A DNA stretch of 64,000 nt, taken from positions 140,877-204,876 of the forward strand of contig NZ_KE384579.1 of NCBI RefSeq assembly GCF_000426825.1, in the 5' to 3' direction. Numbering within the stretch: position 1 is the stretch's first letter; the number at the start of each line of letters is the position of its first letter. Shown here piece by piece: positions 4,036 to 8,486 of the stretch. A program made the position numbers and the translations under genes. The notes beneath the pieces were generated by a model, which worked only from the letters and a program-made list of their open reading frames with translations, did not search any database and had not been told where the DNA came from. The stretch is from Thermonema rossianum DSM 10300. GTDB taxonomy: Bacteria; Bacteroidota; Bacteroidia; Cytophagales; Thermonemataceae.

Positions 4036-4572
4036 TTAAGGAATTTTGGGATTTTGTAATATTTCAATCCAGTGCTCTTCCTTCAAGGGGTAGTCTTTTT
4101 GAATGAAAATAATGCGCGAAAGTTTCCCGCTACGGCTTTGTAGTATAAGAGGGGTATCTATTGAATGCAGCATATCGTAGAGCGGATGGCTGCGTGGCAG
4201 AATGTGGATAGTGCAGGGAGTGAGTTGCTCGTAATAACTTTGTTGTTGTTGCCACACAGGATCTTCGAAAGTAAAGACGGCTGCTTGCCGGTTGATTGTG
4301 CTATCGCATAAAACCCGTAAAAGTATCTCTACACAGTCAGGGCAATCGCCTGCTTTGTAAATGCCGGTATAAGTATATTGCCGGCTTATTGAGTCTATCG
4401 CTTCATGATTTTGTGCTCTGTTGAAGAATAAATCCTGCATATGCCTGTGCCGCTCTTTTAGCTGAAATGCAGTGGTCAGTGTATCGGTTATTTGTGTTTG
4501 AGGCGAATCTGACGTATCACATGCCATATTTCCTATCAAAAGAGCGCATAGCAGAAATATATATCTTTTCAT
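4036..4572 (-). CDS. Putative lipoprotein with CPDC motif
   Basis: A 178-aa protein I cannot assign to a named family. It has a lipoprotein-type signal (MKRYIFLLCALLIGNMAC, modified Cys at 18) and then a mostly polar domain. Residues 77-80 read CPDC, a CxxC pair like a thioredoxin-type redox site, followed by a helix (VEILLRVL). Later lines resemble a beta-strand/helix alternation, but the typical thioredoxin cis-proline loop is not obvious. The gene starts 24 bp after the end of the propeller lipoprotein and ends 38 bp before the efflux adaptor, so it sits in the middle of a tight minus-strand run. A role in thiol chemistry of the neighbouring Cys-rich peptide is only a guess. Confidence 0.75.
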   Translation of the reverse strand: MKRYIFLLCALLIGNMACDTSDSPQTQITDTLTTAFQLKERHRHMQDLFFNRAQNHEAIDSISRQYTYTGIYKAGDCPDCVEILLRVLCDSTINRQAAVFTFEDPVWQQQQSYYEQLTPCTIHILPRSHPLYDMLHSIDTPLILQSRSGKLSRIIFIQKDYPLKEEHWIEILQNPKIP

Positions 4573-4596: not shown

Positions 4597-5715
4597 TTAC
4601 AGCAGCTCCCCGGGCAAGGGAAATACGTAGATGGTACCCGTACTGCCCTGGGCAATGAGTTGTTTGCTTTCTCTGTCTATATGTAAAATTTTGAAGCTGA
4701 AATAGTCATCTTCTATATTACCCGTGCGCAGTTTGAGATAGCCTTTGGGGCGGTAGAAGCCATCGGGCAGAATCTCGACAATGATGGCTTGCACGCTCTT
4801 CGCACGCGGTTTTCCCACGCCCAGCCGCTCATTGAAGCAAACAAACAAAAAACGGTCATGGGCAAAGGCTTGAGTAACAAACATAGGTATCATATAAGGT
4901 TTACTGTATTCTTCCCTTTTTCTTTCTTTGATATCCACTTGCAGGCTGTCAAAGGCTCTTTTCATGGGCGGAGCTTGGGTGAGGTCCAGCTGCCAAAGGG
5001 TATCACGCTTTCCAGTATCGAAGGCAATGACAAAGGGTTGAGTGAATCCCACGGCGCATACATACTTGCCGCCATAGAAAGAAGTTACATGGGCTTGGTG
5101 CCAATTGAGGCGTTCTTTGTAATAGGGAAAACTATACGGGATTTGTGAATACACTTGTGTATGGTCAAATAAACCGGTAACTACGACTTCATAGCGGTTT
5201 TGTATTGTGTTATGAGCCGAGGCATATAGTCGCTTTTGAACCGGATCTAAACTTATCGAACTTATTGAGGTAATAATGAGTTCATGATTTGACTTCTCTT
5301 TCACACTCCCAATATAGGTTGCTTCGGGAAAACGAAACATGTCAAATTCACCGTTTAATCCATCCTCCACATAGATGGTGTCTTGTATGGTGAAAATTTT
5401 TCCCGGATAGCCAAATTCGCCCGGACCTTTCCCATATTTTCCGTGATAGCCCACTATATGAAAGTTGGTATCCGTAACTACAAGGAAATGATTCTGTTTG
5501 GAAGTAATGATGTAGTGATTTTTGTACTGGCAGAGCTCAACGTCGTATTTCCAGAAGAGTGTGTCGTCAAAAGCATCCACGTGGCGGGTGGCTTGCAGGG
5601 TAAAAGTGGGCATGTTTTCAAAAGAGATCTGCTCTTGGGGTTGCTCTTCTGTTTGGCATTGTGTGAGCAGCAGTAAGCTTGCAAGTGAAAATAGAAATGT
5701 TTTGAGTGGTTTCAT
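4597..5715 (-). CDS. Six-bladed beta-propeller lipoprotein (module 1)
   Basis: A 372-aa lipoprotein with signal MKPLKTFLFSLASLLLLTQC (Cys20), then repeated beta-rich blades. The segment HGKYGKGPGEFGYPGK carries the GxGPxEF motif typical of Bacteroidota six-bladed propeller lipoproteins (BF3164/DUF4221-like). These are surface or periplasmic proteins of unknown function that are often encoded directly after a tiny secreted peptide. That is the case here: a short peptide gene ends at 5806, a perfect 34-bp palindrome lies at 5764-5797, and this gene starts 48 bp later. A second propeller at 6464-7597 has the same arrangement. The start fits the signal peptide. There is no recognisable ribosome binding site, as is usual in this phylum. 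Confidence 0.85.
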   Translation of the reverse strand: MKPLKTFLFSLASLLLLTQCQTEEQPQEQISFENMPTFTLQATRHVDAFDDTLFWKYDVELCQYKNHYIITSKQNHFLVVTDTNFHIVGYHGKYGKGPGEFGYPGKIFTIQDTIYVEDGLNGEFDMFRFPEATYIGSVKEKSNHELIITSISSISLDPVQKRLYASAHNTIQNRYEVVVTGLFDHTQVYSQIPYSFPYYKERLNWHQAHVTSFYGGKYVCAVGFTQPFVIAFDTGKRDTLWQLDLTQAPPMKRAFDSLQVDIKERKREEYSKPYMIPMFVTQAFAHDRFLFVCFNERLGVGKPRAKSVQAIIVEILPDGFYRPKGYLKLRTGNIEDDYFSFKILHIDRESKQLIAQGSTGTIYVFPLPGELL

Positions 5716-5763: not shown

Positions 5764-5797
5764 CAAGCTAAGAGAGGAGGCCTCCTCTCTTAGCTTG
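5764..5797 (-). terminator. 34-bp perfect palindrome between peptide gene and propeller gene (module 1)
   Basis: The two 17-base halves, starting CAAGCTAAGAGAGG, are exact reverse complements with no loop bases. On the minus strand it begins 8 nt after the peptide stop and ends 48 nt before the propeller start. There is no T-run after it, so it may be a partial terminator or an mRNA processing/stability hairpin rather than a full stop. A hairpin of unrelated sequence sits at the same place in module 2. Confidence 0.7.
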
Positions 5798-5805
5798 TGC
5801 ATTCA

Positions 5806-6043
5806 TTAAGCCATACTTCGGGTTTTTTGACATTGGGCTACTGACCCTGTACCATCATGGTTTATACAAGTCACAGTGATACTATTATCGTCACTTACAG
5901 CAGAGCACGATTTATTACCGCTACAAGAGATGGTTTCACTGCCACAGGAGGCAGATACTGCGCATGCTTCTCCTTTCTCCTTTCTCCGAAAACAATACAG
6001 CGGAAGCAAGCAGGGTTGCAAAAGCAAAGATGACCTTTTTCAT
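5806..6043 (-). pseudogene. Small secreted Cys-rich peptide, frame broken at a 7-bp repeat (module 1)
   Basis: Begins MKKVIFAFATLLASAVLFS, a signal-like segment almost matching the module 2 peptide. As sequenced, the frame stops at 5936 after 35 residues. A second frame continues to a stop at 5806 and encodes a Ser/Cys-rich tail. The junction is three tandem 7-bp units at 5967-5987 (two TTTCTCC and one CTTCTCC on the plus strand). Removing one unit joins the frames into a 76-aa peptide with Cys at 25, 31, 38, 44, 57 and 69. It could be a phase-variable gene, a recent mutation or a sequencing error. It resembles the NVEALA-type small peptides known beside propeller lipoproteins, though no NVEALA string is present. 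Confidence 0.6.
5967..5987. repeat. 7-bp tandem repeat (TTTCTCC-type, 3 units) inside the peptide gene
   Basis: Plus strand reads CTTCTCC, TTTCTCC, TTTCTCC. The unit length is not a multiple of three, so gain or loss of a unit shifts the frame of the overlapping peptide gene. Loss of one unit restores a 76-aa frame. Confidence 0.85.
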
Positions 6044-6360
6044 GGCTTTTAAGATTTTAAGTGGAACATAGATAAAATCCCCTTGCCGGCGTGGGGTTTG
6101 TTCGCTGCATGTCTGTACAGTGCAGGCGCCACATGCATTGAACATTGCAAGTGTAAAAAAAAAATACGAGTCAAGTGTCTTGTGTAATTTTTTTGTTAAC
6201 GGGTGAAAATATTTTTAGTGTTGGTACATTGATTTTTGTTTGCTTTTTAAGAAAATACCTTTCGATTGCCGCTTGGGTTTTTATTCCCTTGTCATTTCGA
6301 GCATCCCCTTTTGTCATTTCGAGCGTAGCGAGAAATCTATTTGCCTGCTTGTGGCTTGGT
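6044..6360 (-). promoter_or_regulatory. Leader of peptide module 1, duplicated at 7885-8210
   Basis: The region upstream of the module 1 peptide is nearly identical to the one upstream of the module 2 peptide, from the start codons back for about 300 bp and into the dispersed palindromic repeat. On the minus strand it holds a poly-T run (10 T here, 12 in module 2) between CTTGACTCGTA and ACACTTG, and a CCCC...GCCGGC...GGGG hairpin near 6078-6096. It probably contains the promoter and 5' UTR. An in-frame upstream ATG (MFNACGACTVQTC...) exists in both copies but would bury the signal peptide, so I do not use it. Confidence 0.6.
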
Positions 6361-6402
6361 TCGATGAGATTTCTCACCTCGCTGCGCTCGGTTCGAAATG
6401 AC
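6313..6402. repeat. Dispersed palindromic repeat, copy A
   Basis: Left arm GTCATTTCGAGCGTAGCGAG followed by AAATCT; right arm GAGATTTCTC...GTTCGAAATGAC, with a spacer of about 27 bp. The arms are near reverse complements, so the element can fold as a long hairpin. Related copies lie at 8160, 12230, 20023, 30113, 30391 and 49768. Confidence 0.85.
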
Positions 6403-6463
6403 AAGCTACGTTGCGCTTGTGAGAGATGGCAGTTTTTGTTTGCATTCCGTTTAAGTCTTCGCC

Positions 6464-7597
6464 TTACGATTTGACATTGATTTTGTATATCTCAAATCTG
6501 CTTTTGTTGGCTATTTCATCCTCTTCGCTTAGGTGAGCTTTTATGATGATAGTTTGCTTATCGAGCATCATGACGGGAGCGCCCATTTTCTTAGGCACGA
6601 CGAACTCGCTTATAATCTCTCCTTGGCGTGTACACAGTACTACATGGTGATCGAATCTTATATGAGTGTTGGGATATTCAGGGTGTTCCTTAAGGAACTC
6701 TTTGGCTTCTTCTATATTCATTCCACGAGCATAGATGATGTAGAATGTATCTTTATCAAGGAATTGTATTGTTTTTATATTGCTTTCCAGCAACAAGTCC
6801 TCGTACAATCCTATGTGCGGTTCTTTGCTTTCGATAGGATATAGTAAAGGATTGAAATCGGCAAGCTTCAGTTTTATACTTCCCAGTTTTTTGCCTTTTT
6901 TGATATCGAATACATAAACGATTGGCTCATTCGAAAAGACCACATATAATTCTTGCGTTTGTGGGGCTGTGGTGAAAATAGGATACGACTTTCCCCAGTA
7001 TTTACCTGAGGCAAAGAGGCTCTCCGGCTCGGGGAAAGAGCCCATAGGCAGCCTGTCGGTGCTGTCTTGGCTGTTGATACGCAACAAATAAGGGCGCGGA
7101 CTTTGGTAATACTCTTTTTGCCATATTGCTGCCGGGGCGCTTGGGTTGTAGCAAATGATGTAGGGATATGCAGTTTTGGGTAATTTCACAGGATAAGGTG
7201 AGTCACGATTTACTTTGATTGTCCGGACATATTGACCATTGAGCTTGTATAGTTTTATACCACGATGGTCTCCCACTGCAATGGTGGTATCATCAAAAAA
7301 GCCAATCTGATTTAGTACCCAAGAGTATTCTTCTGGACCATCCCCCTTACGGTTGAAATGATATTGCTGGCGCTTGGCTAAGTCATAAACAACGATATCA
7401 CCGGTGCGTGTATTGCCAAATAACAACTTTTTACCCAAGAAGTCTGCAAAGCTGCCTATAATGGGAGAAACATTAAAGCCATCTTGCTTTTGAAATTCCA
7501 CTTCTGCGATAGGGTGCCCGGCTTGTTCGGACTCGCTGCCGCAAGCAAACAATAGTATGAGGGTACAAAGACTAAGTGATGCATGAAGTAGCTTCAT
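6464..7597 (-). CDS. Six-bladed beta-propeller lipoprotein (module 2)
   Basis: A 377-aa lipoprotein with signal MKLLHASLSLCTLILLFAC (Cys19). I start at ATG 7597 because it begins the signal directly; the longer frame to 7660 adds an unlikely 21-residue head that would overlap the hairpin. The blade-like repeats include FNRKGDGPEEYSW, a variant of the GxGPxEF motif of DUF4221/BF3164-like propellers, and several Asp/Gly-rich turns. It lies downstream of a 63-aa peptide gene (stop 7693) with a hairpin (7653-7686) in between, the same arrangement as module 1. The two propellers share the motif and length but are clearly divergent, unlike their leaders. The function of the family is unknown to me. 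Confidence 0.85.
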   Translation of the reverse strand: MKLLHASLSLCTLILLFACGSESEQAGHPIAEVEFQKQDGFNVSPIIGSFADFLGKKLLFGNTRTGDIVVYDLAKRQQYHFNRKGDGPEEYSWVLNQIGFFDDTTIAVGDHRGIKLYKLNGQYVRTIKVNRDSPYPVKLPKTAYPYIICYNPSAPAAIWQKEYYQSPRPYLLRINSQDSTDRLPMGSFPEPESLFASGKYWGKSYPIFTTAPQTQELYVVFSNEPIVYVFDIKKGKKLGSIKLKLADFNPLLYPIESKEPHIGLYEDLLLESNIKTIQFLDKDTFYIIYARGMNIEEAKEFLKEHPEYPNTHIRFDHHVVLCTRQGEIISEFVVPKKMGAPVMMLDKQTIIIKAHLSEEDEIANKSRFEIYKINVKS

Positions 7598-7652
7598 GAT
7601 TTTGCGATTTTCGGAGGTGTTATAGATATGGTAAAAATGCAAATGTAAAAAA

Positions 7653-7686
7653 GAAGACAATCCCCTGCTTACGGGGGATTGTCTTC
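7653..7686 (-). terminator. Hairpin between peptide gene and propeller gene (module 2)
   Basis: 13-bp perfect stem (GAAGACAATCCCC / GGGGATTGTCTTC) with an 8-nt loop. On the minus strand it starts 6 nt after the peptide stop, ends 55 nt before the propeller start and is followed by a short T/A-rich stretch. It has no sequence similarity to the hairpin in the same position of module 1, but nearly the same length and spacing. Confidence 0.7.
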
Positions 7687-7692
7687 GTTAGA

Positions 7693-7884
7693 CTATATTA
7701 TTTCACATTTTTTAACGATACACAGTACGCTGCCCGGTTCTGTACAATCAACTATAGTTACGTCATTTTCTATATGAATTGTTCCATGAACTGACTCATA
7801 GCGTCCCTGTGATTTTGTTTCTGAGCTAAATAAAATAGCTCCAGTTAAAGCAAACAGTGCCAGTAATATTTTTACTTTCTTCAT
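7693..7884 (-). CDS. Small secreted peptide, 63 aa (module 2)
   Basis: Starts MKKVKILLALFALTGAILFSS, a signal-like hydrophobic segment very close to that of the broken module 1 peptide. A polar tail follows with Cys47, Cys55 and Cys60 (VDCTEPGSVLCIVKKC). The start at 7884 matches the homologous position in module 1. The short length, the signal and the propeller lipoprotein downstream resemble the NVEALA-peptide/propeller pairs of other Bacteroidota, although the NVEALA string itself is absent. Export and possible disulfide formation are inferences. Confidence 0.65.
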   Translation of the reverse strand: MKKVKILLALFALTGAILFSSETKSQGRYESVHGTIHIENDVTIVDCTEPGSVLCIVKKCEII

Positions 7885-8210
7885 GACTTTTAAGATTTTA
7901 AGTGGAACATAGATAAAATCCCCTTGCCGGCGTGGGGTTTGTTCGCTGCATGTCTGTACAGTGTAGGCGCCACATGCATTGAACACTGCAAGTGTAAAAA
8001 AAAAAAATACGAGTCAAGTGTTTTGTGTGATTTTTTTGTTAGCAGGTAAAAATATTTTTAGTGTTGATACATTGATTTTTGTTTGTATTTTAACAAAAGT
8101 ATTTACCAGTTGTCGCTTGGGCTTTTCTTTCCTTTGTCATTTCAACCCTCCTCCCTTTTGTCATTTCGAGCGTAGCGAGAAATCTCTTTGGATTCTTGCG
8201 GCTTGGTTTG
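7885..8210 (-). promoter_or_regulatory. Leader of peptide module 2, duplicate of 6044-6360
   Basis: Nearly the same sequence as the module 1 leader, with scattered substitutions and a T-run longer by two. The similarity continues into the dispersed repeat. The conservation covers non-coding bases, so it points to recent duplication or gene conversion, or to a conserved regulatory RNA. No gene is seen between 7885 and 8486. Confidence 0.6.
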
Positions 8211-8249: not shown

Positions 8250-8486
8250 GGTTTCGATGCGTTTCTTTTAAAAATGACAAGCGTCGCCGCCGGTTGCGCC
8301 AAGCCGTGGGAGTGCTGATAAGAGAGGTGAATGGTGTATTTCACGGAGGGGAAATAAAAAAGCTACGCCAGCCGCTCAACCACCTTACCCTTGCTGTATA
8401 TTCCAACCCTGGGGGATTCGGCAGGAGCTGACTGCGTAGCGATGCAAAGGTAGGAAAAAATATATTTTCTGCAAAAGAAGCACAGG

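What the first reader, a model, noticed from the sequence alone, without database searches (positions are those of the whole stretch)
5764..8210. Two parallel modules: duplicated leader, tiny secreted peptide, perfect hairpin, propeller lipoprotein
Two adjacent units share the same layout on the minus strand: a near-identical leader of about 300 bp, a 60-80-aa peptide with the same signal (MKKV...), a long perfect hairpin 6-8 nt after the peptide stop, then a six-bladed-propeller lipoprotein 48-55 nt later. The hairpin sequences are unrelated but equal in length (34 bp) and spacing, which suggests selection for structure. The layout suggests strong expression of the peptide and reduced expression of the propeller. 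The peptides differ in their mature parts (six versus three Cys). NVEALA-peptide/propeller pairs are known in Bacteroides; this looks like a related, uncharacterised form.
Basis: partly seen in the sequence, partly recalled or inferred. Interest (0 to 1): 0.75.

Follow-up and report, generated by a model that had tools for sequence, protein, structure and literature searches.

The report
Switchable promoters drive exchangeable secreted-peptide cassettes
Two side-by-side gene units share almost the same control region but carry different small secreted peptides and partner lipoproteins; the control region holds a run of T's whose length varies, so these bacteria may switch a swappable set of peptides up and down at random.

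Summary
The layout is real: duplicated leader, short peptide gene, hairpin, propeller lipoprotein, twice. Corrections: peptide A is frame-broken by a 7-nt tandem repeat; the hairpins are 34 nt, not 34 bp; only hairpin B has a T tail; the peptides do not match NVEALA. Each leader ends in a promoter whose -33/-7 spacer is a T tract (10 and 12 nt), the only T runs of 10 or more in 64 kb. The sister species keeps the leader (T18), but DNA homology stops at the peptide start codon and the payload is different. In five genomes of the family, 13 of 16 T runs of 13+ precede small secreted or GG-leader peptides, whose partners are propellers, GLPGLI/TonB-type proteins, or a radical-SAM/exporter set. 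Orthologous or duplicated leaders differ in tract length where little else changed. Peptide-hairpin-propeller order recurs in other families, once with duplicated leaders carrying a G tract. Best reading: slippage-tunable promoters driving exchangeable secreted peptide/partner cassettes, probably bacteriocin-immunity-like (a signal-receptor role is the main alternative). Switching and peptide function are inferred, not shown.

The parts
7876..8208 (-). Leader block B (REP-like stretch, A-tract, promoter, 5' UTR), shared with module A and the sister species
   Evidence: DNA homology to sister locus L078 ends at window 7876, just inside the peptide gene
8013..8017 (-). TTGAC, -33-like box of promoter B
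   Evidence: sequence; same box at sibling loci
7996..8007 (-). T12 tract in the promoter B spacer (10 in module A, 18 in sister species)
7989..7996 (-). TACACTTG, -7-like box (Bacteroidota consensus TAnnTTTG)
   Evidence: sequence; consensus from PMC2483708 and PMC9723704
7693..7884 (-). Peptide B, 63 aa, Sec-type signal, 3 Cys; DUF6520-like below cut-off
7653..7686 (-). Hairpin B, 13-bp stem, 8-nt loop, followed by T6: intrinsic terminator
6464..7597 (-). Propeller lipoprotein B, 377 aa; DUF5128-like (18.2 bits, cut-off 22.9); fold matches DUF4221 structure 3s9j (Z 20.5)
6036..6403 (-). Leader block A
6170..6174 (-). TTGAC, -33-like box of promoter A
   Evidence: sequence
6155..6164 (-). T10 tract in the promoter A spacer
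6148..6155 (-). TACACTTG, -7-like box of promoter A
   Evidence: sequence
5806..6043 (-). Peptide A, frame-broken: start and signal in one frame (6043-5936), six-Cys part in another (to 5806)
5967..5987 (-). 7-nt tandem repeat (GGAGAAA x2 + GGAGAAG) at the frame break
   Evidence: sequence
5764..5797 (-). Hairpin A, 34-nt palindrome without T tail
4597..5715 (-). Propeller-like lipoprotein A, 372 aa; 24% identical to the propeller at L055
   Evidence: model of modest confidence
4036..4572 (-). Small lipoprotein with CPDC motif after propeller A; similar-sized lipoproteins follow the propeller at L055 and L078

Best explanation
Each unit is a strong expression leader plus an exchangeable payload. 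The leader is an A-tract, a TTGAC -33 box, a spacer made largely of a T tract, a -7 box and a ~100-nt 5' UTR ending at the peptide start codon. The payload is a small secreted, usually Cys-bearing peptide, a hairpin, and a membrane-anchored or exported partner (here a propeller lipoprotein). Shown by sequence: the layout, tract-length differences between otherwise near-identical leaders, and replacement of the payload behind a conserved leader. Inferred: slipped-strand changes of the T tract move the two promoter boxes apart or together, so cells vary in peptide output; the hairpin ends most transcripts after the peptide, so peptide exceeds propeller; the propeller is the cognate binding partner of its own peptide, most likely immunity in a bacteriocin-like system, less likely a receptor. 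Duplicated leaders give homology for swapping or adding payloads.
For: T tract: T10/T12 are the only T or A runs of 10+ in the window. In five genomes of the family there are 16 T runs of 13+; by inspection 13 lie upstream of small secreted or GG-leader peptides. A blind criterion (Sec-type Cys peptide starting 20-200 nt downstream) gives 7 of 16, against 1 of 23 for T10-11 runs, 2 of 115 for T6-8 runs and 2.6% of random positions. TTGACN{0,6}T12 occurs in 390 genomes of the order only in this genus and one 0.8-Mb genome. Length variation: two 420-bp leaders at L065 differ by about ten substitutions, one 1-nt indel and the tract (T15 versus C+T8); L063/L075 have 40/40 identical nt before tracts of 14 and 17. 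Payload exchange: window and sister homology stops at the start codon and resumes at the next gene; at L063/L075 the promoter and signal (75/75 nt) and TonB-type gene (97%) are conserved, while the mature peptide is 37% and the GLPGLI partner 49% identical. Hairpins: after the peptide at 11 of 12 sibling loci (L063 and L075 modest), plus L118, L123, L139. Partner kept without peptide: L067 has a signal remnant and propeller but no mature peptide or hairpin, propeller dN/dS 0.13. RiPP company: the same promoter type drives GG-leader peptides with a radical-SAM/SPASM maturase and a peptidase-type ABC exporter. Other family: G055 has two adjacent peptide-hairpin-DUF4221 modules with near-identical leaders that diverge at the start codon and carry a G tract (AGGAGGGGG and G9).
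Against: No transcript, start-site, read-level or protein data. Tract lengths were compared between species and between duplicate leaders, never within a clonal population, and assembly errors at homopolymers cannot be excluded. Long T tracts are not exclusive to peptide genes (terminators, an MFS gene, a SusC-like gene), and many peptide-propeller loci lack one. Hairpins occur in 5 of 12 control gaps. Several peptides are broken (module A; L078 frameshift; L139 lacks a start codon), which could be plain decay. The top-scoring DUF4221 proteins elsewhere have no peptide. Nothing tests whether peptide and propeller bind.
Confidence: 0.55

Rival explanations
1. The T tract is only part of a strong constitutive promoter (bent or easily melted spacer). 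Length differences are neutral slippage, there is no switching, and peptides are made at a steady high level.
For: A-tract upstream of the -33 box, TTGAC box, and post-stop hairpins suit high expression; homopolymers vary in length anyway.
Against: TTG-to-(-7) spacings read from the sequences run from about 11 (L065 second copy) to 22, which a fixed-geometry promoter would not be expected to tolerate; longest tracts concentrate at peptide genes; a G tract sits in a similar place in another family.
Confidence: 0.25
2. Ligand-receptor pairs: the peptides are signals or colonisation factors and the propeller lipoproteins (or GLPGLI/TonB-type proteins) are their receptors or carriers. The promoter part of the model may still hold.
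For: Peptide and adjacent partner diverge together; TonB-type genes lie next to several peptides; the propeller model resembles peptide-binding propellers such as LRP6 among its matches, which is an analogy only.
Against: The peptide-less propeller at L067 kept under constraint fits immunity at least as well; no sensor kinase or regulator was seen next to the modules.
Confidence: 0.3
3. Decaying, selfish or neutral small ORFs behind a repeated leader; the conserved element is the leader and the peptides do nothing.
For: Module A, L078 and L139 peptides are broken or lack a start; REP-like repeats precede the leaders.
Against: Signal sequences conserved 75/75 nt at L063/L075; Cys peptides in the same position in other families; same promoter type on a RiPP maturase/exporter operon.
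Confidence: 0.12

Closest known systems
Homopolymer-tract promoters: Helicobacter pylori sabA T-tract and Mycoplasma hyorhinis vlp A-tract
   Same: A T or A homopolymer in the promoter region changes length by slippage; tract length tunes sabA output (PMC4081817) and switches vlp genes (PMC10502178).
   Different: Those control surface adhesins and lipoproteins; here the tract sits in a Bacteroidota-type -33/-7 promoter and serves a dispersed set of secreted-peptide operons. Effect on output not measured here.
Pneumococcal blp bacteriocin-immunity region
   Same: Small secreted peptides with adjacent partner genes and variable content between strains (PMC4860687, PMC6422914); conserved leader with variable modules is from general knowledge.
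   Different: No two-component regulator or shared exporter seen beside the propeller modules; Sec-type signals instead of GG leaders in most; partners are propeller lipoproteins or GLPGLI/TonB-type proteins.
DUF4221 (PF13970) and DUF5128 (PF17170) propeller lipoproteins
   Same: Window propeller B models onto the DUF4221 structure 3s9j (Z 20.5); the sister-species propeller at the same locus is DUF4221 (E 2e-28).
   Different: Window propellers miss both Pfam cut-offs; many DUF4221 genes elsewhere have no peptide.
NVEALA and DUF6520 peptide families
   Different: Below the 25.4-bit cut-off; no NVEALA match; mature parts unrelated.

Membership tests
NVEALA peptides (Pfam) | match to the NVEALA profile | tested here: not met
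   no NVEALA hit at E up to 1 for peptide A or B
DUF6520 (PF20130) | score over curated cut-off 25.4 | tested here: not met
   peptide B 22.5 bits, E 1.5e-4; G004 peptide 15.4 bits
DUF5128 (PF17170) six-bladed propeller | score over curated cut-off 22.9 | tested here: not met
   propeller B 18.2, L067 21.5, L072 18.6 bits
DUF4221 (PF13970) | score over curated cut-off 23.4 | tested here: not met
   no match in G000 at all; met by the sister-species propeller at the same locus, L078
DUF4221-type propeller fold | same fold as the solved member 3s9j | tested here: met
   Z 20.5 over 315 residues, three units above the next entry; model pLDDT 73. Fold only
Phase-variable promoter | homopolymer between promoter boxes | tested here: met
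   T10/T12 between TTGAC and TACACTTG
Phase-variable promoter | tract length varies between near-identical copies | tested here: met
   L065 duplicate leaders T15 versus C+T8; window T10/T12, sister T18; L063/L075 T14/T17
Phase-variable promoter | reversible, high-frequency change in a clonal population with effect on expression | not testable with these tools
   needs reads and reporters
Bacteriocin-immunity system | peptide inhibits cells lacking the partner; partner protects | not testable with these tools
   no assay; indirect: co-variation and peptide-less propeller
RiPP operon (radical SAM type), sibling locus L064 | GG-leader peptide with maturase and peptidase-containing exporter | tested here: met
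   TIGR04463-like rSAM/SPASM 1.5e-42 and NHLM-type ABC 1.5e-109, both below equivalog cut-offs; GG motif read by eye
RiPP operon | maturase beside the window peptides | tested here: not met
   no maturase or exporter in the two modules

The most novel reading that the evidence does not exclude
A family of Bacteroidota keeps a dispersed regulon of secreted-peptide cassettes of several chemical kinds (propeller-paired, GLPGLI/TonB-paired, radical-SAM RiPP), all behind one promoter type whose homopolymer spacer changes length, so each cell expresses its own peptide combination; duplicated leaders act as homology arms for acquiring new payloads. Other families use a G tract in a similar place.
Probability: 0.4. 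Interest if true: 0.82.

Novelty: new variant of a known kind. Interest (0 to 1): 0.68.

Why it matters
Phase variation in Bacteroidota is known mainly through DNA inversion (e.g. PMC4747536, PMC8748976 listed); promoter homopolymers as a shared switch for secreted peptides would be a new mode there, as far as the library searches show. It also gives a simple sequence signature (long T tract between -33 and -7, peptide, hairpin, partner) for finding peptide cassettes that annotation misses, and ties uncharacterised propeller and GLPGLI families to specific peptides, making their function testable.

Tried and rejected
Rfam on the region: no regulatory RNA family in the leader, only a sub-threshold small SRP RNA next door. 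Leader as riboswitch-like structure: fold no better than shuffles. Leader as a genome-wide repeat: only two copies in this genome, one in the sister. Exact leader string in genome contigs: two hits in unrelated phyla, taken as chance. NVEALA in the literature: no paper in the library. Conservation by the window propeller's sequence in the order: only weak hits in G055, without peptides. Top-scoring DUF4221 loci in the order: mostly tandem propeller arrays without peptides. Programmed frameshift in peptide A: not pursued; the 7-nt repeat is a simpler cause. Propeller A model is too weak (pLDDT 61) to search with.

Full report
What is there. On the minus strand two units follow each other. Module B: leader, peptide 7884-7693 (63 aa, 3 Cys), hairpin 7686-7653 with T6, propeller 7597-6464. 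Module A: leader, peptide region 6043-5806, hairpin 5797-5764, propeller 5715-4597, then a small lipoprotein 4572-4036. The leaders are 97% identical over the 111-nt 5' UTR, and the homology ends at the start codons. The hairpins beat shuffles by 5 to 7 standard deviations.

Corrections. Peptide A is not intact: the ATG frame stops after 35 codons and the six-Cys region is in another frame, with a 7-nt tandem repeat at 5987-5967 between them. Each hairpin spans 34 nt, not 34 bp, and only B has a T tail. Strong hairpins also occur in 5 of 12 control gaps between same-strand genes in this window, so the hairpin alone is not remarkable.

The missed feature. Between TTGAC and TACACTTG, boxes that resemble the Bacteroidota -33/-7 consensus (PMC2483708, PMC9723704), lie T10 (A) and T12 (B), the only T or A runs of ten or more in the window. 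I listed all T10+ runs in this genome and the sister species G001 and read their surroundings. The long ones mostly sit in the same promoter setting upstream of small secreted peptides: L055, L059, L063, L064, L065 in this genome, and L072, L075, L078, L079, L084 in the sister. With G004, G005 and G006 of the same family added, 13 of 16 runs of T13+ are of this kind by inspection. A blind criterion gives 7 of 16, against 1 of 23 for T10-11, 2 of 115 for T6-8 and 2.6% of random positions; it misses GG-leader and broken peptides. Related loci are not independent, so no p-value is claimed. The pattern TTGACN{0,6}T12 is found in 390 genomes of the order only in this genus and in one 0.8-Mb genome.

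Partners. Downstream genes are propeller lipoproteins (window, L055, L072), DUF4221 propellers (L078, L118), DUF5128 (L139), GLPGLI proteins and/or CarboxypepD/TonB-type genes (L059, L063, L065, L075, L079, L123), or a radical-SAM/SPASM protein with a peptidase-type ABC exporter after GG-leader peptides (L064, scanned; L084 by its 90% identical rSAM). Hairpins follow the peptide at 11 of 12 loci, though the L063 and L075 ones are modest (z about -2.5), and at L118, L123 and L139; not at L065, L117 or L119.

Variation. At L065 two leaders of about 420 bp differ by roughly ten substitutions, a 1-nt indel and the tract (T15 versus C+T8). L063 and L075 share 40/40 nt before the tract, which is T14 and T17. 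Window and L078 have T10/T12 and T18. At L063/L075 the signal (75/75 nt) and TonB-type gene (97%, dS 0.12 against 1.1-2.3 for ordinary ortholog pairs) are shared, while the mature peptide (37%) and GLPGLI (49%) are not, so the locus was probably exchanged recently around a replaced payload. Window and L078 homology runs up to the peptide start and resumes at the next gene. L067, the ortholog of L072, has lost the mature peptide and hairpin but keeps a constrained propeller (dN/dS 0.13).

Wider view. DUF4221 loci in 59 relatives show a 59-84-aa secreted peptide, usually with Cys, 51-80 nt before the propeller with an intervening hairpin in G004, G006, G037, G041 and G055, of three families. G037 has T14 and T12 there; G041 and G055 have G tracts near TTG boxes. 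In G055 two adjacent modules have near-identical leaders that diverge at the start codon, as in the window. The best-scoring DUF4221 loci, mostly tandem arrays, have no peptide.

Structure. Propeller B models at pLDDT 73 and matches DUF4221 structure 3s9j best (Z 20.5, 315 residues).

Mechanism. Shown: layout, tract-length differences, payload replacement. Inferred: slippage in living cells, its effect on transcription, peptide excess by termination, and peptide-propeller pairing. T-tract tuning of a promoter is proven for H. pylori sabA (PMC4081817) and A-tract switching for M. hyorhinis vlp (PMC10502178), so the mechanism is plausible but untested here. Between immunity and receptor roles for the propeller the data give only a slight lean to immunity.

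Noticed in passing
window 8358-8446 (-): Sub-threshold match to Bacteroidales_small_SRP (42.6 bits, gathering 55.2), just upstream of leader B.
   Followed up: no
window 6306-6361, 6385-6404, 8153-8208: REP-like repeats (TGTCATTTCGAGCGTAGCGAGAAATC) before each leader.
   Followed up: no
L061, L054, L053: T10 runs also lie before a SusC-like gene, an FG-GAP-type secreted protein and a 941-aa secreted protein.
   Followed up: no
L065:621-3369: Second duplicated-leader locus in this genome: same signal peptide, different mature parts, T15 versus C+T8.
   Followed up: partly
L139: Peptide in G006 lacks a start codon but keeps T14, hairpin and two propeller-like lipoproteins.
   Followed up: partly
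L055, L064, L084, L119: 5' UTRs share GCACCCGGGA although the peptides differ.
   Followed up: no
L143-L162 (G055) and G246, G359, others: Tandem arrays of DUF4221 propellers without peptides.
   Followed up: no
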